The notes beneath the pieces were generated by a model. The model had not been told where the DNA came from, did no database searches, and worked only from the letters and a program-made list of their open reading frames with translations. 33,626 bases of DNA from a virus. The DNA lies in the IMG/VR virus record IMGVR_UViG_3300033148_004541, positions 1 through 33,626 of that record; one strand, written 5' to 3'. Positions 2,020 through 25,708 of this stretch are shown here, piece by piece. Position 1 is the first letter of the stretch, and every line of letters begins with the position of its first letter. The position numbers and the translations under genes were made by a program.

Positions 2020-2523
2020 TTATTTATTTTTATTTTCAAGTTTTATATCTGGTTCAGTTCTATCTATCTTATATCCTTTGTCTATTAAGATATTAAAAAT
2101 AGCTGTAGGACTAGGTAATTTAGTAGTTTCTTTAAGTATTCACGCATGAATTAAAAGTTGATAAACTAGCTCGCTACAATACCATCTGTTTGGATCATGT
2201 TCTACTTTCGTAAAGATGTAACTTAATATTCATGGGAAGTCGTAAGCTTTTCAAACTTGCTTTTCTAGCCATTCAATCTCAAATTTTCAAGGAATAACCA
2301 TAATATCTACTATTGTTTGTCTTTTATGGTAATGACTCCAATGTCAAACTTTTAATATTTTACTATTAATAATTCATTGATTCCACCGAGCTTCGTAATA
2401 ATTTGGTCAAACCTGTATTCCCACATGAGAGTAAGGCTTACCACTAAATTTCATAATTATTTGTGCTATAAGTCATTTTCATCTGAAAAAAACTATTTCA
2501 GCTTTATTGTATACTTTATTCAT
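2020..2523 (-). CDS. Permuted papain-fold hydrolase (YiiX/NlpC-P60 superfamily)
   Basis: A 167-residue protein. An early strand followed by YSHVGI gives His33, and RWYCSELV places the candidate catalytic Cys near residue 115. His before Cys is the order of circularly permuted NlpC/P60 enzymes such as YiiX. FFRGKGLIAQIIMKFSG is the typical N-terminal strand-helix. These enzymes cut amide or ester bonds, often in cell-wall or lipid substrates. The position in the lysis cassette suggests a wall hydrolase. The start overlaps the upstream stop by 8 bases. Confidence 0.78.
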
Positions 2524-3327: not shown

Positions 3328-4032
3328 TTAGTAAGATAAACCCGGTCATCAATTATATAAATCGCTCCAATCTTGTGCTGATAATACAGAATTCTTAGCA
3401 AAGAAGAATTCATCTCAATCTCATTCAAAGAAATTAGTCAATGCTTTTCATATTCTTAATGGAATATTATTTAATGTAGGATTTCAAGCAGTAGTTACAC
3501 TTCAATCAGCAGAACCATTTATATAACATTGTAAAAGCTTACTAGTATTATTATAACTAAATCAAACGTGATACCAAGTTCAAGTTGTAAGAGTTGCAGT
3601 AGGTGCTGAATTAGTATAATATGTACCAGAATTAGCATAGAAGTCAATTCTAAATTTACCATTTGTATTAACTAACATCATCCAACCATCAGCTCAAGAA
3701 TCTCTTTTTGACATAAACCTTGTGTCTGTAGAGCTTCAAAGAGTATCTAGATTAATCCACCCTCAAGTGCTAAAATCTCAAGGAGTATCAAAACTAGAAT
3801 CATCTAGTTCTACATAATCATTAGTTGTAAAACTATATCCTCAATTAATTTTAGCGGGTGTAAAGAAACTAGCTCAGAAAATAGTTCAATCTACTCAAGT
3901 AGTTGGTACTGAATCAGGGAAAGTTCAATCCGAATCCATTTTCCGATAATTAGTAATCTTACTAGATAGTGAAGTATTCCCCCCGAAAGGGGGAATTACT
4001 GAAGAATAGTTTATTATTCATATATTAAACAT
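3328..4032 (-). CDS. LamG/concanavalin A-like domain protein (234 aa), tail receptor-binding candidate
   Basis: The Laminin-G_3-like fold is clear from YRKMDSDGTFPDSV, then FSTGGWINLDT, then TWYHVGFSYNN, then NIPLRIGKALTNFFEGDGDEF, ending DWSDLYNGG. Such domains bind glycans or proteins. The first ATG of the recognised domain is residue 34; I chose the upstream ATG at 4032 because the frame stays open and supplies the expected first strand. The N-terminal codons include a perfect C5/G5 hairpin at 3980-3995. It directly follows the tail fibre gene and probably belongs to the adsorption apparatus. Confidence 0.82.
3979..3997 (-). other. GC-rich hairpin inside the LamG coding start
   Basis: The minus strand reads five C, TTTC, then at least five G, a near-perfect stem in a genome that is otherwise very A/T-rich. 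It encodes IPPFGG about 50 bases downstream of the LamG start codon. It could tune translation or protect mRNA. It lacks a U-tract, so it is not an intrinsic terminator. Confidence 0.5.
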
Positions 4033-4033
4033 A

Positions 4034-6409
4034 TTATATTAGGTTACCATATAAATTCCAAGAGTCAGTTCAGACTTTCATTAATGTTAATCAAACTCAT
4101 TGACCATTACTTGTTTTATTACTATCAAGTGAATTAATAGTTACTCAAGCTCCTGCGACTGTTACAGCTCAAGCACCATCTTGACTTAGATCAACTTGTG
4201 TTCCTATTGGAAAAGCTACTGAAGCATTAGTCGGAATTGTAAGGGTAATTGCAGCAGCATTTGTTAATGTAACTAGTTTACTTTGATCTGTTAATACTAA
4301 AGTATAAGTAGTTCAAGTTTGTGCGTTTATTAGAGTTTCTGCTGGGATGTCATCTAATAAAGCTATTGTTCAACTCTTATCTGGAACTGTTAAAGTTCTA
4401 GTTGTTCCTGTTGTTACTCAAGATAATTCAAATGCAAGTTTTTTAGTGTCATCTCAATTGTCAAAAACAGTAAAGTTAGCATCATTAAAATCTGTTATTG
4501 CAGCAGCTCAACTTCAAGAAGCACTTCCTCATGGAAGAACTCATCTTAAATCAATGAAATTAACTCAGAATCCTAAGGCTTCATTTGTAAAACTTCAACC
4601 TCATCATGCTGCGTATTTTAGCACAAATGCACACACCAATACTGGGGTGTCAAATCATTTTGGGAAACTTGTATTACTTAATCCGTCAACATCATTGAAC
4701 GCATCTGAAGCATTACCATAACTTCAATTAGGCTTTAATAGATATACCTTATCATTTAATCAGCTATCGTAGTTTTTACTAACTCACATAACTATTTGAT
4801 AATATTTATTACTCAAGCTAGCTCATGTAGCATCTGTAATAATTGAATTTAAATCTGTAATTTTAGTATAAGGAGTTGTTTCATCGTTTATTATGTAAGC
4901 TCAATCTACTGAAAGTGTTTTAGCTATTACATCTTGATTAAACATTTGTTTAACTACTCATGTAGCAATAGTAAAATCTACAGACTCAGGACTTGGTCAG
5001 GTATCTATTGTAAGATTAGGAGTAAGTCAACTTTCGTAAGTAGTTCATCCAAGCTCTCTTATTCTATTAATAGCTGTTGTTATTATTCATTGTCAGTCCA
5101 CTACTGTAGCGTTGTTGAATCTTCTAAATGTTAATTCTTTTTCTGTGTTGGTAATTGTTGCATCCAATACATTTACTGTACCTAGAATAGCTACCGTTCA
5201 AGTAGGAGCAGAAGTTGCAGTTTGTAATACTGCTATTGATCCACTTAATCATACATAAATCCAGTTTTTCACTGGCACTGTAGCAGTTCAGGCTGTTAAA
5301 CTAGCTCTAGCTCTACCTCAAATACCTGCTCATGTAGCACAATCAAGTATGTAATTTTTACTTCATATTTGTACTGGTAAATCTCCTCCTCAATCTTTTT
5401 CTACATCTACATATATAATTCCTCAATCTACATATATTACTAGATCTTGTGACTCAACTGCTGTTCACTCAATAGTATAATTAAATGGATCAGTTTCAGT
5501 ATTTACTCATAAAACACCATTAGTCGCATCAGAATATACTGTAGATCAAATTATGTAGGCTCTTCATGGATATGTAGGTCTTGATGTTGTAAATGCTCAA
5601 TTTTCTCCTAGGTATAGAACATTTCAAACAGCAACTGAAGTTGTGTCAATTCATTCTACAACTCATTTTTGTACAAATTCTACCAAACCTCAATCATTAG
5701 TAGTGTTACCTGCAACTCAAAGTACCCAGTTTTGATTATATGTTCTATTATCAGCAACTCAAACTTCAAAATTAACATCTCATACATCTACTCAAGATAC
5801 ATATATTACTTTACCTTTTAGTATTTCTCAACCAGTATTATTTAAGAATTTACTAGATAGAGTCCTTCATAGTTCAAGTCTAAACTCGTTAGCTAATCAA
5901 AATTGTAGATTATTTATAGAGTTTTGGAATAGTTTATCCGTATTAGTTGCTGGAGTTTGTCCAGTTGGGTATTCAGTAGATATAAACTCAGGAGTTCAGG
6001 TTGTAGTAACGTCTTGATTAATAAACGTATGGTCACTTCAATTAGAAGTCCTATGAGTAGTATTATCATCAAGATTCGTTTTATCTGTAGCTGTTAATAT
6101 CTTATTCGTAATTCATTCTACCATGTTATCCATATCGAAAGCATCTCAGCTTACATTAGTTGGATCATAAGTAGATTTGTTCATATCTCAACCTCAAGGG
6201 ATAACTGCCCATCCTCGGTCTTTTCTTCAATATGTAGATCAATCTCCTGGAGCTTCTTCTGTTTTACCATCTAGTGCAGTTTGTGTACTATCTGATATAG
6301 GTAAGTCTGCTATATCAAATTTCTTAGTCTCTCCTCATTGAACCATTACTCATAGGTCAGTTCAAGTTGGAGTTCAGCTATTAAGAGCTGATATTTTACT
6401 GTCTGCCAT
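4034..6409 (-). CDS. Tail fibre protein (791 aa)
   Basis: Starts MADSKISALNSGTPTGTDL, a common fibre N-terminus that attaches to the virion. It is Thr/Asn/Gly-rich and repetitive, with no helix-rich domain. Near residue 650 is DLRGVLPGGSASGSGAAA, followed by TRTLTVPDKSGTIALLDDI, a repeat typical of phage fibres. The final part, VTLTNAAAITLTIP and VDLSQDGAGAVTVAGAG, matches widespread fibre C-terminal beta modules. It carries very many UGA glycines, so the standard code shatters it. Its stop overlaps the start region of the LamG gene by leaving one base between them. Confidence 0.9.
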
Positions 6410-8872: not shown

Positions 8873-11518
8873 TTATTGGTTAAGGAAATTAAGTATATCT
8901 TCATCAGAAGCATCAGCTCATATTGTAGTAGTGCCATCTCAACCGATACTAATTCACTTATTTCTTAGTGTGGCTTTAGTATTATCAAGTACAGTTTGTT
9001 TTGCACCTCTCATTAATTTAACCTCATTAGTGAAAAATCATTTGAATGGGTTTTTCCCTGCTGTAATACTTGGAATCACATCTTCCATTAACTCTAAATC
9101 TGGTCAATTCAATACTCATAAATTAAATAATTCCTTTGCTTGTAGTAGCGCATTTTTATGCTCTTGTTCTATTAACCTTTTTGTTGTTCACGGTAAAGTT
9201 TTAGTTCAATATTTTTCAGCATATCATATTAATTTATCCATAGATTGGTTAAATGCTCCAAATACATCAATATCAGTTGATAGCTTTTTCCTATCAGCAC
9301 TTGATAATGCATTAAATGCTTCTTTATTTGATATGTTAAATCATTTTTCTTTAAATATTTGTGCTGCGTTAGCATTATATCATTCATTAGCGTCTTTTAC
9401 AAATCTTTCATATTCAGGAGTTCCAAATTTCATTCCTGTGGGGATCTTATCATCTTCTATAAAGGCTCTGTATTGTGGAAGTTTATTCTTATCATATCAT
9501 CCAGTTATTGTGATTTCTTCAGAAGCCGTATAATCATTAGGATTTAACCATTCATTATTAGTGCCTCTTACTCTATAATCTAAATGAGGTCAAGTACTGA
9601 ATCAACTACTACCTGATAATGCTATAACGTCTCATTTTGCCACTGTATCTCATTCACTTAATATTCATTCACTTAAATGGTTATACATATGTCTATTACC
9701 TTGTTTATCTGTTACAATCGCTTGTAATCAATAATCTCAAGCTTCTTTAATACTTGTAACTGTTCAATTAACAAAAGATTTAACATCAGTTCATACTGGC
9801 ATAGCATAATCTACTCAAGGAGTTCATACCTGACCATCTGCTAATCTTACATTATCTATAGCATTAGGAGAAGTTGCGCCATAATCTTGAGTCACTCTAT
9901 ATTGATCCATAGAAGTATCTTTAGAAGTAGTCCTTGTTTGACCTGTTGTAGTATTATATAATGTATTATCATCTAATTTAGTCCATTTACTTGTTCAACT
10001 AGCACTTGAGGCCAATCCTGTATCGTAACTTTTAATAATTTCTCAAGTTTGAGTATTTACTAAGGCAGTTTTACCAGTAGCAGGGTCTTTCAAGAATGAG
10101 GTTGCAATTCATTGATTTTCTCGCGCTAATTTATCTTGTGCTTTATTATATTCAAATTGTTCTTTTTGGAAATCAAAAGCTCTATCTTGACTAGCTAATT
10201 GTAACCCTTCTTGTCTTAATGTTTCTTGCCTACCTGCTTCTTGTTGGAATAAGTTATAATTAGTAGTGAATAACTCAGTTGAATCAGCTTTTAATTGAGT
10301 AAGTGTACCTACTGCATTATTCGCTTGTGTAATAGCTAGATTTAAAGGTCATAATATAGCTTTCTTCCTATTATATACAAGTTGTTTCATGGCAGCAGTT
10401 CACGCAGCCGTTCATTTCAACTCTTCTTTAACTTGGTCTTCAACAGCATCGTATTCAGCTTGTAATTCAGCTACTTTATCTTTTTTATCTTGTACCTCTT
10501 GATATTTAGCTGTAATTTCTGGAGTATTTGTCATTGCATTATATTCAGCTCTGCTTATAGATCAATCAGATAATGCAGTTCATAATGTTACTTCCTGTCA
10601 ATCAACTACTACTTTATTACTATTTCATATTTCAGTAGAAACCGTCTCAAATACAACTTCTTCATTAATTGAGCCTTCTCACTTAATAGTATTTAGTTCA
10701 GTTAGTTTTTTAATCCTCTCTGATTGTAATGGGTCTCACATCAAATCACTATATGCTTGAGTTCATGGTAATAGTATTCCTTGTCATAGTGCTGATTGTA
10801 ATTGACTATCATTTAATCTCTCATAAGCTTTATATTGATCCACTCTACCTTGTAACTTCTCATAATTAGGATTAGTTTTATCTACTCATACTAATAATGC
10901 TTGTTTAAATGTAGTTTCTCAAGTCTCTCAGACTTTACCTAAACTAACTTTAACAGGGTTACCTTGTTCATTAATACTCCATTCAAACTTTTCATCTCAA
11001 ATAGTAGCAGTAACTTTTCAATTCTTAACCTCAGCGATAGTTCCATATCTATCTTCTACAAATTGGTCTAAGTTTTCTAATCAACCTCATCTTTGTTTGA
11101 ATTCATCGATGTTATCAATTTTATTGAACGTTTGACCTTCAGTTGTTTCAGTTTTTGTAGTTTCTTCTATTTTAGTATCAACTACTGGCTCAGTTACATC
11201 AGTTTTAACTGGTTCTTCCGTTTTTGTTGCATCTAGAGCAGCTTTAGCATCTTGTTCATTTTTATAATCTGTAATAGATATTCAATATTTTTCTTTGTAA
11301 GCATCGTTAACTGCTCAAATATTTTCTTCTGTTATTTCTCAACTTTTTATTCTATCTGTAAATCTAGCTCAAGCCTCAGATGCTTCCTTTCGTATAAAAG
11401 GTTTAGTAGATTCTAAAGGTTGTTTTTCAGCCATTTCCATTAGTTCTTGTTTTGGTTGAAGTGGTTGAGTTATCTCTGCTATTCGCTCATCCTTAGTTTT
11501 AGGTATAGGTGTTGCCAT
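8873..11518 (-). CDS. Virion protein with M23 peptidase domain (881 aa)
   Basis: Residues 1-150 are helical and charged, then coiled coil, then an M23 domain at about residues 560-655: GVDYAMPVGTDV, then RHMYNHLSEG, then VAKGDVIALSGSSGFSTGPHLDYRV. M23 enzymes are zinc endopeptidases that cut peptidoglycan cross-links. The last HxH is HLD, so the third metal ligand is changed and activity is uncertain. The helical C-terminus extends past residue 700. A virion-borne wall hydrolase would open the cell wall during DNA entry. It is the first gene behind the promoter at 11546-11572. Confidence 0.85.
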
Positions 11519-11600: not shown

Positions 11601-12105
11601 AAGAATATGCTGTCATTATTATTTTTATATCTATATCGCTGTTTATATATGTAAGCTCTATTCAGCCAGCTATGAAGTCATCAAAGTTAGCCCTAGTTAT
11701 ATTTCCTGAATTATAAACAGCTATAGCTCTTGTGCTTATATCGTTACTGTCTCCATCCCCTATTCTAAATCAAGCAGGAGTTCAGTTTTCTAATATAGAA
11801 ACGTCAGAAAAGGCAGCAGGAGTTGTAACAGCAGTAGGAACAGCTTTTATTAATACTTCTCTAGGAATAAAACCAAAGCCTGTATATTGTACTGTTTCAA
11901 GTCATCAAGAAGCAAGTTTACTAAAGGTTAGTGTTTTAACTCAACCTCAAGCAGTTAGCTCAACCTCTCTACCTATTTTTAGTCTTTGTTTAACTTGTCA
12001 AGGTTTATATGTATCAGTCCAGTAGTTTAGATCATCTCGTTTAATCTCCATTCAACCCTTATTAGTATCATCAAAAGTTAATCATTTATCTTCTTTTATT
12101 TTCAT
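11599..12105 (-). CDS. Structural protein, tail-associated (168 aa)
   Basis: Starts MKIKEDKGLTFDDTNKGG and is beta-rich, with DGDSNDISTRAIAVYNSGN and a final IKIIMTAYS. It overlaps the end of the 478-residue gene by 10 bases (ATGAAAATAA). It sits in the virion operon and ends in the terminator at 11575-11600. It could be a tail or decoration protein; the family is unknown to me. Confidence 0.72.
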
Positions 12106-13532
12106 ACGTTTTGATTACCAAATAAATCTATTCAATAAAACCTTCACTCTGCATCTCAAGTATGTGGGAACTCTACCTTAAATCTAATTGTATTAAATAA
12201 ACCAATTGGGTTTAAAAACATTTGTTTATTAATCTTCAATCAATGATTACTAGAAGTTATAGAATTGTTATTTCCTTCCCAAATCTTAGCCCATGTTCAA
12301 CTTTCATCTAGTTGGAAGTATAGAATTATATTATTAGTAGTGAGTCCAGAGAATTTTAATATAAGATTTTCTATTGATTTCTCATATTGTATATTATCTC
12401 ACACAAATACTAGGCTTTCTAAGAAAGAATTAGTCGCTTGTGATTCGGGGGTTCATGTACTAGTATATAATTTAGTAGCCCTAGAATAATATATTCATGA
12501 TGAAGAATAATTAAATACTTGCTTACCATCTATACCATCGTCTATATCAGTTGTATCTATAGAGTATATAGGATTAATCCCTTCTGAATATCATGGAAGA
12601 GTACCATATTGAGCTAATGCTATTCAATCAGAAGAATCATAGTTTAAATATATTTGGTCTTCGTATGCCCCTAACAAATTATCTATTCTACTACCTAGTT
12701 TTCAATCAAATATCTTTTGGTATTGTACTCCTGCAAATTTATATAAATCATTCTCGGCTGAAGCATAATCATAAGCTCATTTATTTATAACTGAGTTTAT
12801 TGCAATTCATTCTAAATTTACACTTGTTTCAAGAGTAGAAGATGATCAGTCCCAAATATGTAACCTAGATGCTGTTAATCAAATAGCTGTATAAATTCTA
12901 TACTGTCATTGAAACTGTGTAATTCATATAACATTCTCGTTATAAGGGAATTCTATTAGATTAGTTACGACCTCATTGTTATCTATCTGAAGGATGCTAT
13001 TATAATGTGAAAATATTATTCTATATCACTCTTCTACTATTTGCATTCAATCTAAAGGAGCAGAGGTACTATTTCAAGTATCAGAGGTATAGGTTAAATA
13101 TCTATCATCAAAGGTACTTCAATCTAAATTACTCCTATGGATATATTTAGTAACTGTACTTGGTGCTGTATCTTGGAAATAGTATAACTTTTGATCTCAT
13201 CAAACTGTAGTCATGTGAGCCATTCTTTTCCCTCAATCTGAAGCAGTAGCTTTTAATACAGAAGTTTCTCACTCTTCTCGTAAATATATTTCTTTATTAG
13301 AAAGCCATACTATCTCTTGATCTCAACCTCAAGCCTTCTGAACGTTATATAATCATCTAATGCTCGATCCAAACGTATCTATAAGGTTATTATTGTCAGT
13401 AGGTCTTACATCATATCTTCTTGTGTCTACTCAATATCAAGAAAAATATCTACCTGTTTGTCATTGGTATTTTTGGTCATTCACTCATCAAGTGAAGTTA
13501 TTCCATTGTATTATTAAAGGACTTGATGCCAT
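12096..13532 (-). CDS. Beta-rich tail/stopper-like structural protein (478 aa)
   Basis: Starts MASSPLIIQWNNFTGGVNDQ. The body has recurring short strands such as QEIVWLSNKEIYLREEG, GDQKLYYFQD and GQYRIYTAIGLTASRLHIW, a pattern like a beta-propeller. The opening motif, NFTGGVNDQK, is common in phage tail-tubular or stopper-like proteins. It begins 5 bases from the connector gene's stop. Probable short-tail component, inferred from position and composition. Confidence 0.75.
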
Positions 13533-14199: not shown

Positions 14200-14399
14200 T
14201 TGTTATTTATTAGGTTATATTGTTCAGTCACAGCCTTTCTAACTTGTTTTAGTACACACTCATAGTATTTATCATCATAGTCTTTTACAAGTATCTTTTG
14301 AAACTTCTTACTCTTATGTGTGTATATTAATTCAAGTACTGTTGTTTCAGTTCAGTCTGGCATTGTACATTGTTTAACTTCTTTCTTTCTTACTTTCAT
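14190..14399 (-). CDS. Small head-region protein (69 aa)
   Basis: Starts MKVRKKEVKQCTMPDGTET and continues KSKKFQKILVKDYDDKYYECV. Its start lies inside the end of the glycosyltransferase gene in another frame (26-base overlap), and its end overlaps the connector start. The tight coupling suggests that it is made with the connector. Function unknown. Confidence 0.72.
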
Positions 14400-15063
14400 A
14401 TCTTCATTGGTCAGGGAATAAACTCTCTAGTAATGCTTTAAATTCTTCAGATACAATCAAGCAATCAAGGTTTGACAAGAATGTAGGTAATTCTTCAGGG
14501 ATTTCTTCTAAATTTCTTATCTTAAAGTCTTTTAGATATTCTCATACTATTCAATAATGATTGCAATACAAATTTCTTAATAAATATCATTGGGTCATAT
14601 CGTATTTAGTCTGCAATGCTAAGAATTTAACTTTATTATAAACAATAGGAGTGTGTAGACTAAAGTCCTTTCATCTAGGGAATAACTGAAATGTTTTATA
14701 TAAGTTATTTATATAGCTTCCACGTTGTAACCTATCTCTTTTCTCCAAATAGTGATCCATTATAGATCATTGATTGTAATATTTTATTTCTGTTTCTTTA
14801 GTTATATAGAAGTCGTCATTCATTAATATGAAATCATCACTTATATTTTTATAATTACAAGCTATATTTATTTTATGCAAGGCATTTAAACTCTTTATTT
14901 TATAAGGGTCTTCAGCAGAGATATGAATAACATTCTCTACCCATTCAGGCTTATATCAAATAATGTATACCTTATCATGTTCTATATTTTTTAAACTTCT
15001 CAAAGAGTATCTTAATTCTAAGCAATTATCTGCTCATTCTCTTAATATGTATACTATGTCCAT
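14374..15063 (-). CDS. Stealth-like glycosyl(phospho)transferase (229 aa)
   Basis: Starts MDIVYILREGADNCLELRYS. HDKVYIIGYKPEWVENVIHIS resembles the CR1 block, and DDFILMNDDFYI (about residues 78-90) the CR2 block of Stealth proteins, which transfer sugar-1-phosphate in capsule and teichoic-type polymers. The paired Asp residues would bind metal. It is shorter than full Stealth enzymes, so parts may be missing. Its place between capsid and connector suggests virion decoration or host surface change, which is inference. Confidence 0.65.
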
Positions 15064-17028: not shown

Positions 17029-18900
17029 TTATAATCAAGGACTTGCTGCAATAGGTTCTTGTGCTTGTTGGTTTTCATTATTCATTGACATATTTAATGC
17101 TTGTGCGTTTCATTCTCATTGCTCATTTGGATTAACTCAAGTGCTTTTCCATATTGCGAACTCTTTATATTCGCTTAATGCTTTATCTTTAGCATCTGTA
17201 TCCATTGCTTGTTTGTATATATCTAAGTATATATCTGGATTTTGGTTAGCTTCTGGGCTTGGTACTTCAATATCATTATTAAGTAATTCAAGATTTGCCT
17301 TAGCATCTAATTCATCAACACTTTCTCTAATATATTTACTAGAGTCAAAATCTCTAATATTAGATTTATCTCATAATGTTCTAAGTAATTCATTCTTAGC
17401 ATATTCACTTGTAATATTCGGAAGATAGATATTAGCTATAATAGAAAGCTTATTAAACTCTTTGTCATTTTCTATTTGTTCTTGATTTCTACTTACAACA
17501 ACTACTTGTACTTTTCAGTCTGCTATGAATTCTTTTTTAGCTAGTTCTAAACTTACTGCAGAACCTTTTTGCCACATAGATATATTTTTCTTACCTTTCT
17601 TACTCATATTAAGAGCATAACTTCTATAGTGTGCAGTCCGATATTCTTTTTGTCATCTTAGGTAATTATTACTAATCCATCATAGAATGTTATTAGCATT
17701 TTGTTGTAACGTTTGTATCTCAGCTTTAGTTTGACTACCTCATTGAGTTAATCCAAAGTTTTGTTTAGATATACTTGTAGTTTCTTCTGCTAAGTTCTCA
17801 AGCCTAGCGATTAATTGATCTGTATATTGATTTGGCACAGGTGGAGTAAAAGGGAAAATACCGTTTTGTGTTGGCATTCAACTTTTATTACTTATAGGTA
17901 ATATTCTTCAACCTGGTTTAGACTTCTCTAGTATAGTTGTGTCTATTCCTAATTTATCATCAATAAATATATCTGGTCATAATGCAGCTATTCTAGCATT
18001 AATTATTTGTAGATTAGTTAATTGTGTAGATAAGTCTTGGAATACTAATACTTCATCTGCTATAGATACTCAACATACATTACCTATTTTAGGTTTTCTT
18101 CTATGTAATTGAATAGGAAACTTAACTTTAGTTGGTTTTAACCTTTCTGCCTCAGTCAATGGTTCTATTTCCATATATCTAATTAGAGTATTCAAGTCTG
18201 CTGACCAAGTAGTTAATACCTTCATTCATTTATGGATAGTGAAGTGGTCGTATATATCTACCAATCATTCATTATCGTTACTATATGTATAGTTATTAGC
18301 TTCATCTTGTGATCTTTCAGTCTTAGTAACTTCTTCATCTATAGATCATTCTATTTCCATTACTTGCTCCTTATCAAAAGCTTTATTAGTCTTTAATGCT
18401 TCGTAATCCATTCTTCTTCTAACTCATATAAATCTAAGTTTACTACCTTTGTAGTTCTTAGGATCAATTATAAGGTTTAAAGGATTAATAGTATCACTAA
18501 TAGGTTGTATTTCTTCATCGTCCCGTCAATCTATAATAGTAGCAGCTAATCAGTATACAGCATTGTAATTCACTATATCTTCCCTCATTTCGTATAAATC
18601 CATATCTATATCATCATACTTTGCCATCATATTAGCATTTCTCATTATCTCATTTCATAGAGCTCATGTATTAGTTAAGAATTGTACACTAATATCATCA
18701 GTTAGAAATAATGCGTTTTCTAATTGTATATTCTTCCATAATAATGGGATTCTTACTTGTCATTCTGGTAATTCAGGGTCAAGCACTTTGTCTAAAATAT
18801 TCCTTTTCCTGTCAAGTTCACTTCTTATGTGGTTAAATCACATATTGTATTCTCTTCTAACCTTTCAAGATAATTCTTCTTGAAGCTCAAGTAGGCTCAT
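17029..18900 (-). CDS. Portal protein (623 aa)
   Basis: Starts MSLLELQEELSGKVRREYNM. The order fits a portal: PEGQVRIPLLWKNIQLENALFL, then DIVNYNAVYGLAATIIDG, then INPLNLIIDPKNYKGS, the FIGVRRRMDYEALK stem region, and QTKAEIQTLQQNANNILGWIS before the crown. Size is normal. It forms the dodecameric ring through which DNA passes and that docks the terminase. Residues are broken by UGA about every twenty codons in the standard code. It follows TerL with its own promoter at 18929-18955. Confidence 0.85.
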
Positions 18901-18957: not shown

Positions 18958-18982
18958 TAAAAAGCAACCTGTTAGGATTGCT
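18958..18982 (-). terminator. Intrinsic terminator overlapping the TerL stop
   Basis: AGCAATCC-TAACA-GGTTGCT followed by five U residues on the minus strand. The left arm overlaps the TAG stop of TerL. Confidence 0.8.
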
Positions 18983-20390
18983 AGTAATTAGGAATGAATG
19001 CCTTAGCTTTTTCCTTTGGTGTATTATACGAGTTTAATTCAAAATAACATCTCATCATTAAAGTGTCTGAATAATCAGGGCTCCTTCATAGTTTTTCTTT
19101 TACTCAATCTTTACTAAGTATTTTCTTTTTTCAGTCTTTATCTAAATCCACTTCAACTACCACATCCAGTTCCTCTGATAGTTCTGTAAAGTTTTGGTCT
19201 AATACTCTTATTTTATTTCAATTAACTAGCTTAGCTAGCTCAAAGTAACATTGAGTCTTTAAATTCATAAAGTTTACTTTCTTTGTATCATCATACTTTG
19301 CTTCTAGTGGTTGTATACAGCTAGAGTTATTAATAAACCCTTTACATCTTAAATGATCTACTATTCAACCTCATACTCAATCTTCATCAACTATTGTATT
19401 ACTCATTCATACATTGTATTTATAAGCAAACTCTTTTATCTTATTCTCTATATCTACATTTAAACATTTTAGAAACTCTACTCTGTCTATCTCTTCATAA
19501 TTATCAAAAACACTTATAATAGCTTTATCTTTTCATTTTCTAGCCGCATCACAGCTAATATATTTATTTCAATTATATTTAGGATTAGTTTTTAGATCTA
19601 ATATCTTATTGTATTCAAATAACCTTCAAGGAGTATCATCGTAATCAAAGTTACCATAATAATATCTTTGTCTTAATACTTCATTCTCTTCATTCTTTAG
19701 CTCATCAAGATATTCTTGTGATAGGTAAGGATTATCAGTAGGTAGAGCAGGGATAAACATATCCTTTCACATATCCAAACCATTTTTGTAAGGTAAATAG
19801 AAAGTTCTATATACCCATCATTTATCAGGGTTAAAAGTACTCAATACTTTTCTTGGAATATTATACTCTACGTTTAAGTGTCTTCATACTCTTTTCTTTA
19901 AAACAGCTACTCACATTTCGGGACATTCATTTGCCTCATCTATATAAGCTCAAGTTATCTCAAGTCCTCATATTTTAGTAAAATGTTTGTCTGTTGGCTT
20001 ATCCTGTAGTCATCTAAATAGTATCTCACTTCCATTACTAAACACTATCTCTTTTCATCAGTTCCTTGTAACATAATCATAAGCTCAAGGCTCTTTGTTT
20101 AATACATCAATACTAGAAGCTTCTTTAAAACCTAGTATTAGCAATGCCTTAACAAAAGATTGAAAAGTTGTATCTAACACATCTGTAATATATCTTCTGA
20201 ATACTCAGTATTTAACTCAAGGATACTTCTTACACATCATAGATATCCATAATGCAGCTAAGATAGTTTTCCCTCATCAAGCAGCTCATCAGTATCAAAG
20301 ATTATCTATTCAGTTATCTTTAAGTAGTATTTGCAATGCTTTAAATTGTTTTATACTTGGCTTAACTTCAATTATTCTTTCGTTCTTCAT
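18981..20390 (-). CDS. terL: Terminase large subunit (469 aa)
   Basis: Packaging ATPase-nuclease. Walker A is GYGGAAGGGKT at about residues 30-40, with five glycines encoded by UGA. Walker B is AYIDEANE near residue 150. The nuclease carries CDAARKGKDKA near 280 and VDEDGVGGG near 335. It pulls DNA through the portal and cuts it. The start at 20390 overlaps the TerS end by 29 bases, in a different frame, and the stop is TAG. Length is normal for the family. Confidence 0.93.
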
Positions 20391-23001: not shown

Positions 23002-23376
23002 TTATTTCTCATTAACAATTAAATTAATCTTTCATAGTTCACAAGCATGAATATCATCTATACAAATATCAGGAATTATATCTGGTTCAAATATGTGTTT
23101 TCAAGAAGAGTCTTTCCCTTTGTGGTTTTTACTTGCATATCAATCTACAAATTGACATAAACCTAATTCACTAACTATTAACCTAGCCCAATCTTCTCAT
23201 TGTCAACTCCAAACTATAATTTTAATATTTTTAAAACTATGTAATATTTTTAATAGTTCTATTATTCTATCGTTTGCGATAAGATTATAATTACTAGGGT
23301 CTTTATATTTTAAATATTTTGCACATATCTTTATTAACGTTCAATCGACGTCAAATGCTATTATTGTTTTCTTCAT
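23002..23376 (-). CDS. HAD-superfamily phosphatase (124 aa)
   Basis: Motif I is AFDVDGTL at residues 7-14, with Asp9 as nucleophile and Asp11 as general acid; the conserved Gly is UGA. Motif II is VWSG near residue 60. Motif III is probably SKNHKGK, and motif IV is DICIDDIH near residue 105 with two Asp residues for magnesium. All four HAD motifs are present in a protein with almost no cap, so it may act on a macromolecule, such as a DNA or RNA 3' or 5' phosphate, as with polynucleotide kinase-phosphatase. The substrate is unknown. Confidence 0.87.
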
Positions 23377-24680: not shown

Positions 24681-24783
24681 AGTATATAATATGAGATTTG
24701 AACTCATATCTCTATCTTAGTAGACCTCCATAATATAAATATTACAGGATAGTGTTTTTCTTGTTAAACTATATTTATATACT
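24681..24783 (-). tRNA. tRNA-like fold with enlarged anticodon region
   Basis: Ends AGTATAT and ATATACT pair perfectly, the T-arm ATGAG-TTCAAAT-CTCAT is canonical, and CTATC/GATAG arms could be an anticodon stem. Between those arms are about 30 bases in place of seven, and three extra bases separate the T-arm from the acceptor. No encoded CCA. It might be a tRNA with an insertion, or a tRNA-mimic. Confidence 0.28.
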
Positions 24784-24804: not shown

Positions 24805-24881
24805 TGGTCAAAGAGGTAGGACTCGAACCTACAACCCCACGCGTCCAAGGCGTGTACGCTAGCCAATTGCGTCACTCTTTG
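24805..24881 (-). tRNA. tRNA-Pro(UGG)
   Basis: A fully canonical cloverleaf: acceptor CAAAGAG/CTCTTTG, D-stem ACGC/GCGT, anticodon stem CACGC/GCGTG with loop CTTGGAC (anticodon TGG), T-arm GTAGG-TTCGAGT-CCTAC, discriminator A and encoded CCA. C1-G72 is the bacterial proline identity pair. It has clearly higher G+C than its surroundings. Confidence 0.95.
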
Positions 24882-25044: not shown

Positions 25045-25119
25045 TGGAGCTAAGCACAGGTATCGAAACTGCGACCCTTCCTCCTAGAGAAAGTGCTCTA
25101 CCAACTGAGCTAGCCTAGC
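25045..25119 (-). tRNA. tRNA, glycine-type body with anticodon loop TCTAGGA
   Basis: Acceptor GCTAGGC/GCTTAGC, D-arm GCTC-AGTTGGTA-GAGC, discriminator U and encoded CCA. G1-C72, C2-G71 and U73 are bacterial tRNA-Gly identity elements, and the D-arm and following bases match bacterial tRNA-Gly. Anticodon stem is CTTTC/GGAAG. The 7-base loop gives TAG at positions 34-36, C in place of the invariant U33, and two extra pairs could close the loop to three bases. The T-stem has a U-C mismatch at 53-61. It is not a plain Gly(UCA). Function unclear. Confidence 0.6.
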
Positions 25120-25378
25120 ATATATTAGGATATAAGTATTAGTTATACCCTAAATTGTAGTGTTTTATCAGGTTACACATATATAGCCGACTACCTGAAA
25201 GAATGCTTTATGGTGATCAAGGTTAGCTCTTAACTAAACGACTTAATCAAAAATCCAACAGTCGGGTTAATCCTTATCTATAGTTGGGTTAACCCCGTTG
25301 AATATTGTTTTGAACCTCCGTTGGGCCACATTGTTAAGAGGTGTAGGAAGTATTGACTTAACTATTATAATCAATTAT

Positions 25379-25708
25379 TTATTTATTTCAATACTTTTTT
25401 ATCATATCTATTGACTTTTGCACTAAATCCTTAGTGTTCTTCTTTGTTTCAAGTATTTCTTTATTGAACTCATATCATTCATCAGGACTGAACTCTGGAG
25501 CTATCACATAGACTAGACTATTATCACTTCTAAGCATATTGTAATCCATTTCGCTTATTATGTGATAGACTTTAAATCAAATAGTTTTACTGATAGATTT
25601 AATAGCTTTGTCTAGTTCTTCATCTGTTGCTTTTTCAGGATCAGTAGATGGAACTTCATTTATAGTTTTATGATATGTATTGATTATTAGTTCTTTATCT
25701 TTTCTCAT
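25379..25708 (-). CDS. Hypothetical protein (109 aa)
   Basis: Starts MRKDKELIINTYHKTINEVPS, helical and charged, with a strand NSLVYVIAPEF and a Lys-rich C-terminus. Two UGA glycines. Its start overlaps the stop of the membrane protein upstream by one base. It is the last gene before the tRNA block. No family. Confidence 0.7.

What the first reader, a model, noticed from the sequence alone, without database searches (positions are those of the whole stretch)
20268..20300. UGA means glycine throughout this phage
Reading UGA as glycine joins dozens of minus-strand fragments into genes of normal length. The decisive site is the TerL Walker A loop: five UGA codons give GYGGAAGGGKT, whereas tryptophan would put five Trp in a loop that must be glycine-rich. 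HAD motif I (DVDGTL), M23 (VAKGD, TGPHLD) and the LamG gene agree. UGA also appears as codon 2 after ATG. Both UAA and UAG still end genes. Table 25 is known for Absconditabacteria and Gracilibacteria, so the host is likely there.
Basis: partly seen in the sequence, partly recalled or inferred. Interest (0 to 1): 0.92.

Follow-up and report, generated by a model that had tools for sequence, protein, structure and literature searches.

The report
Phage recodes UGA and probably CGG
This virus of an ultra-small bacterium reads the usual stop codon UGA as glycine, which is known for its host group, and very probably also reads the arginine codon CGG as tryptophan, which I found reported for such hosts but not for their viruses.

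Summary
The window is a 33.6 kb virus record, almost wholly coded on the minus strand once UGA is sense: ORF cover rises from 3% (table 11) to 74%, with 442 in-frame UGA in 9,822 codons, about 66% of glycine codons. UGA means glycine, not tryptophan. Against 12 standard-code TerL homologues, UGA columns hold Gly 142/327 (background 4%) and Trp 1/327. With UGA masked, window UGA opposite sense codons of recoded relatives are Gly 58/224, Trp 0. HMM scores peak with Gly. No tRNA-Gly(UCA) was found in the window, so the host must supply it. Two Gracilibacteria-class MAGs holding phage relatives carry tRNA(UCA) with glycine identity. Code-25 phages of these hosts are already published: a new member of a known kind.

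Beyond the finding, table 25 is not enough. CGG, normally Arg, aligns with Trp in this phage family: 15 independent columns, Trp in 6, Arg in 0 (Arg codons would give about 8.6 columns with Arg, 0.02 with Trp). In the window's portal, CGG sits at residues 421 (Trp in 9/9 relatives) and 126 (Trp/Phe/Tyr in 8/8). CGA in the window does not look like Trp. CGG=Trp is published for such hosts; I found no report in their phages.

The parts
20265..20297 (-). TerL Walker A loop GYGGAAGGGKT with five UGA codons (residues 32, 34, 35, 38, 39) and one GGG
   Evidence: standard-code homologues have GGAAGGGKS here
18981..20390 (-). terminase large subunit, 469 aa, 29 UGA codons, ends in TAG
   Evidence: PF04466 5e-10; phrog_2 5.5e-32; alignment
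17029..18900 (-). portal protein, 623 aa, 24 UGA codons and two CGG codons
   Evidence: phrog_1216 9.7e-10; relatives
17638..17640 (-). CGG codon, portal residue 421: Trp in 9 of 9 relatives that do not have CGG there
18523..18525 (-). CGG codon, portal residue 126: Trp 5, Phe 2, Tyr 1 in 8 relatives
2386..2388 (-). CGG codon, residue 55 of the C92-amidase-like protein; reading it as Trp raises the phrog_1128 score from 77.7 to 80.2 bits
15161..16054 (-). major capsid protein, 297 aa, 4 UGA
   Evidence: phrog_267 4.5e-15
12096..13532 (-). conserved tail-region protein, 478 aa, 34 UGA, shared with recoded relatives and MAG contig L031
8873..11518 (-). 881 aa protein with M23 peptidase domain (domain 9539-9820), 48 UGA
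   Evidence: PF01551 9e-21; UGA residues face Gly in solved M23 structures even when translated as Ala
4034..6409 (-). 791 aa tail protein, 65 UGA
   Evidence: phrog_8780 4e-18
23002..23376 (-). HAD/PNK3P-like phosphatase, DVDGTL motif
   Evidence: PF08645 1.2e-4
24805..24881 (-). tRNA-Pro(UGG)
   Evidence: ARAGORN; Rfam 62 bits; 75-87% identical to tRNA genes of the Gracilibacteria class
25045..25119 (-). tRNA-Leu(UAG)
   Evidence: ARAGORN; Rfam 45 bits
24683..24778 (-). degenerate tRNA-like element with a 25-nt insertion in the anticodon loop; the loop holds no UCA, so it is not the UGA reader
   Evidence: Rfam RF00005 32.2 bits; sequence; fold

Best explanation
A tailed phage of a code-25 bacterium (Gracilibacteria/Absconditabacteria lineage) whose whole gene set is written in the host's code. 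UGA is decoded as glycine by the host's tRNA-Gly(UCA), and genes end at UAA, rarely UAG, so no UGA-reading release factor is needed. In addition the phage very probably follows the host lineage's second change, CGG read as tryptophan by a Trp-type tRNA(CCG), while CGA in the window looks unchanged. Shown here: UGA columns are Gly, CGG columns in the family are Trp and never Arg, no UCA tRNA found in the window, UCA and CCG tRNAs of matching identity in a MAG that holds a relative. Inferred: that this host's tRNAs do the decoding, and the host itself.
For: UGA. CGG: in recoded relatives 102 aligned residues opposite CGG include Trp 36 and no Arg, whereas CGT/CGC/AGA/AGG give 47-77% Arg (overall Arg-codon rate 47%). 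Collapsed to 15 independent columns: Trp in 6, Arg in 0; resampled Arg-codon columns never gave 0 Arg columns or 6 Trp columns in 20,000 draws; TGG columns are compatible (P 0.07 and 0.70). Held-out portals L114, L115 and L116 have Trp at both window CGG sites, although L115/L116 come from lineages whose own CGG/CGA sit where relatives have Arg. G039 has tRNA(CCG) with A1:U72, G73 and no A20 (Trp-type by the criteria of PMC8629427) next to tRNA-Gly(UCA). Host class: collinear phage contig L066 in G039 and tail contig L031 in G074.
Against: The window itself offers only two alignable CGG sites, plus one weak HMM site; two of the six Trp columns come from L083, a more distant phage. G039 also holds an Arg-type tRNA(UCG) that could wobble onto CGG, and G074, which holds another relative, shows no tRNA(CCG). 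The MAG contigs are short (6.2 and 3.0 kb) and could be binning errors. No CRISPR spacer was seen among the best host matches. No protein data.
Confidence: 0.9

Rival explanations
1. UGA is glycine but CGG is still arginine (plain table 25); the two portal CGG sites are true Trp-to-Arg substitutions.
For: Table 25 is the catalogued code; CGG is rare in the window (9 codons) and only three sites are testable; contexts of the other six CGG codons do not decide it.
Against: Trp-to-Arg at two aromatic columns shared by several phages, with no Arg at any of 15 CGG columns in the family, P below 5e-5 against resampled Arg-codon columns; held-out relatives agree.
Confidence: 0.1
2. UGA is tryptophan (code 4) in this phage.
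For: Code 4 is the commonest UGA reassignment in phages and bacteria.
Against: Trp 1/327 against standard-code TerL, while TGG columns give Trp 22/24; Trp 0/224 in the masked test; Trp gives the lowest TerL and M23 scores of ten residues tried.
Confidence: 0.01
3. UGA is a stop or readthrough signal, or the record is a decayed genome or bad assembly.
For: None found.
Against: UGA makes up 4.5% of codons in all genes, open frames return only when UGA is opened and not UAG or UAA, and independent relatives keep UGA or Gly at the same columns (218 UGA-UGA columns).
Confidence: 0.005
4. The host is a standard-code bacterium (for example Bacteroidota, where the nearest named phages live) and the phage changes the code during infection.
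For: TerL is about 40% identical to Flavobacterium phage 11b and to prophages of Bacteroidota.
Against: No UGA-reading tRNA found in the window and no release factor or synthetase noticed among its genes (the record may be incomplete); recoded relatives occur in Gracilibacteria-class MAGs; all genes are recoded, not only late ones.
Confidence: 0.04

Closest known systems
Code-25 phages and prophages of Absconditabacteria and Gracilibacteria (Liu et al. 2023, PMC10746230)
   Same: Dense in-frame UGA read as glycine; almost no genes under code 11; IMG/VR contigs
   Different: That paper does not mention CGG or arginine codons; no spacer link was found here; I did not check whether this very contig is in its tables
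RSA-ATP1, 39 kb tailed phage of an Absconditicoccaceae host (PMC13059738)
   Same: Tailed phage of similar size, code 25, carries tRNA genes
   Different: RSA-ATP1 encodes its own tRNA-Gly(UCA); none was found in the window, which has Pro(UGG) and Leu(UAG). That paper does not discuss CGG or CGA
CGA/CGG-to-Trp reassignment in Absconditabacteria, CGG-to-Trp in some Gracilibacteria (Shulgina and Eddy 2021, PMC8629427)
   Same: Same codon, same new meaning, same bacterial lineages, same tRNA(CCG) type
   Different: Described there for bacteria; the phages it tested were for the AGG-to-Met change
Flavobacterium phage 11b and Cellulophaga phage phi10:1
   Same: TerL about 40% and 38% identical
   Different: Standard code; TerL was the only window protein with a match in the stretches of these genomes that I compared

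Membership tests
Phage using NCBI code 25 (UGA = Gly) | Dense in-frame UGA; genes appear only with UGA as sense | tested here: met
Phage using NCBI code 25 (UGA = Gly) | UGA columns match glycine in homologues, not Trp | tested here: met
Phage using NCBI code 25 (UGA = Gly) | UAA and UAG remain stops | tested here: met
   TAA 58, TAG 5 gene ends; frames end again 2-11 codons after TAG
Phage using NCBI code 25 (UGA = Gly) | All other codons standard | tested here: not met
   CGG aligns with Trp, not Arg; no other well-sampled codon stands out as reassigned
Phage using NCBI code 25 (UGA = Gly) | Host with tRNA-Gly(UCA) | tested here: inconclusive
   Found in MAGs G039 and G074 that hold phage relatives; the window's own host is unknown
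Code with CGG = Trp (Absconditabacteria/Gracilibacteria type) | CGG columns are Trp | tested here: met
   for the family; two window sites
Code with CGG = Trp (Absconditabacteria/Gracilibacteria type) | CGA also Trp (Absconditabacteria form) | tested here: inconclusive
   Four window CGA sites favour Arg over Trp weakly; CGA looks like Trp in relatives L027 and L083
Code with CGG = Trp (Absconditabacteria/Gracilibacteria type) | Trp-type tRNA(CCG) in the host | tested here: inconclusive
   Present in G039, not seen in G074; true host unknown

The most novel reading that the evidence does not exclude
Phages of this family carry both reassignments of their hosts, UGA=Gly and CGG=Trp, and differ among themselves in CGA (Arg-like in the window, Trp in L027 and L083), so the phages record the stepwise change of the CGN box in their hosts and would be confined to hosts with the same doubly changed code.
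Probability: 0.5. Interest if true: 0.65.

Novelty: new variant of a known kind. Interest (0 to 1): 0.5.

Why it matters
UGA=Gly phages are known, so that part adds a well-documented member. A phage family that also uses CGG as tryptophan would show that viruses follow a sense-codon change as well, would mean that annotating these phages with table 25 puts Arg where Trp belongs, and would give a codon-level marker of host lineage where CRISPR spacers are lacking. Within this one family, relatives with CGG=Trp, with CGA=Trp, and with CGG still at Arg positions can be compared directly.

Tried and rejected
Spacer search: both halves of the window against 353 Gracilibacteria-class genomes gave many short AT-rich matches; none of the 14 flanks inspected held a CRISPR-like repeat array. 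Only repeats of 22 bases or longer were looked for and weaker matches were not inspected, so this is not proof of absence. A UGA-reading tRNA in the window: not found by ARAGORN over the whole window, nor by Rfam with loose cut-offs in 23.5-26 kb; the third tRNA-like element has no UCA in its loop. Relatives of the capsid, the 762-1385 and the 2020-2550 proteins by direct viral scans: none; 762-1385 also had no match in named phages. CGA=Trp in the window: not supported. Reading CGG as Trp did not raise the portal or 3328-4032 profile scores; those CGG sites lie at the edge of or outside the profile match. One origin or several of the recoded TerL: the tree needs two changes, but the backbone is weak and one origin is not ruled out.

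Full report
What was checked. The window is a 33,626-base virus record, G+C 28.6%. Under table 11 the minus strand has only four ATG ORFs of 80 aa or more (3.4% cover). With UGA open it has 37 (74.1%), including proteins of 881, 791, 729, 623, 478 and 469 aa. Opening UAG or UAA instead gives 7.6% and 9.7%. The 63 called genes hold 442 UGA codons (45 per 1000) against 232 GGN codons; 58 end in TAA, 5 in TAG. The Walker A claim is exact apart from a one-codon shift of the coordinates.

What UGA means. (1) TerL was aligned, UGA masked, with 12 standard-code homologues from named phages and IMG/VR. At its 29 UGA columns those homologues have Gly 142, Trp 1 of 327 residues; background Gly is 4.1%; TGG columns give Trp 22 of 24. 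(2) Translating UGA as each of ten residues, the phrog_2 score of TerL is 112 bits for Gly, 94 Ser, 90 Ala and 63 Trp; the Pfam M23 score is 77 for Gly, 56 Asn and 38 Trp. (3) With UGA masked, 12 genes were compared with recoded relatives: 218 UGA-UGA columns, and 224 window UGA codons opposite a sense codon, of which Gly 58 (20-fold enriched) and Trp 0. In the other direction Gly 102 of 284, Trp 3. (4) The M23 domain with UGA as Ala still aligns these residues to glycines of solved M23 peptidases.

Relatives. Recoded relatives are L001/G001, L002, L003/G003, L026, L027, L110, L111 and L112 from IMG/VR, and contigs of Gracilibacteria-class MAGs: G039 C187 (L066: portal 42%, capsid 44%), G074 C87 (L031: tail 48-49%), G023 and G022 (TerL 38%) and G020 (portal). 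The class was reached through L022, a contig titled Candidatus Gracilibacteria. Standard-code TerL relatives are mostly phages and prophages of Bacteroidota. In the TerL tree the four closest recoded phages form a clade (99/100) separate from the L083/L084 pair; one origin of recoding is not ruled out.

How it is decoded. The window has tRNA-Pro(UGG) and tRNA-Leu(UAG) but no tRNA(UCA) was found. MAGs G039 and G074 each have a tRNA(UCA), labelled SeC by ARAGORN, with G1:C72, C2:G71, G3:C70 and U73, the glycine criteria of PMC8629427. So the likely reader of UGA is the host tRNA. This is inferred: the window's own host is not identified and no spacer match was seen.

A second change. A codon-by-codon table of aligned residues flagged CGA and CGG. 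Across the recoded family, CGG faces Trp 36, Tyr 14, Phe 8 and Arg 0 of 102, while CGT, CGC, AGA and AGG face mainly Arg. Collapsed to 15 independent columns, Trp occurs in 6 and Arg in 0. Resampled Arg-codon columns average 8.6 with Arg and 0.02 with Trp, and none of 20,000 draws reached the observed values; TGG columns are compatible. In the window, CGG is portal residue 421 (Trp in all 9 relatives without CGG) and 126 (Trp 5, Phe 2, Tyr 1). Three portals not used in the first count (L114-L116) have Trp at both, and L115/L116 use CGG or CGA where relatives have Arg, so the change is specific to part of the family. At a third site Trp raises the phrog_1128 score from 77.7 to 80.2. Window CGA codons at four sites lean to Arg over Trp. 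G039 has a tRNA(CCG) with Trp features. PMC8629427 reports CGA and CGG as Trp in Absconditabacteria and CGG as Trp in some Gracilibacteria. Two searches of the held library found no paper on phages with this change, and the two code-25 phage papers do not mention CGG. Subscription papers were not searched.

Verdict. The added CGG=Trp reading makes it a new variant, at about 0.88 confidence for CGG and 0.98 for UGA=Gly; the overall 0.9 covers both with the host inference.

Noticed in passing
18981-20390 (-): TerL is a domain mosaic: residues 1-245 (ATPase) are 83% identical to L001 but 38-40% to L002/L003, while residues 246-469 (nuclease) are 76-79% identical to all three. The portal next to it is 74% identical to L002/G003 but only 27% to G001.
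   Followed up: partly
24683-24778 (-): Third tRNA-like element, 23% G+C, canonical T-loop, 25-nt insertion in the anticodon loop, inside a 10-bp outer helix; the loop before the insertion reads GUA (Tyr).
   Followed up: partly
25120-25400 (-): Non-coding stretch upstream of the tRNAs with a strong predicted fold (-57 kcal/mol, z -2.1), no Rfam match.
   Followed up: partly
14374-15063 (-): Weak Stealth CR2 match (PF11380, below cut-off) and strong phrog_7999 match (2.6e-42, unknown function) in the structural gene block: a possible sugar-phosphate transferase.
   Followed up: no
L027 1993-3852, codon 225; L083 4976-5386, codon 101: CGA codons at Trp columns, unlike the window: relatives may differ in the meaning of CGA.
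   Followed up: partly
L082 (G039 contig C2, 2230-2450): A class II tRNA with long variable arm and anticodon CCG; identity unclear.
   Followed up: no
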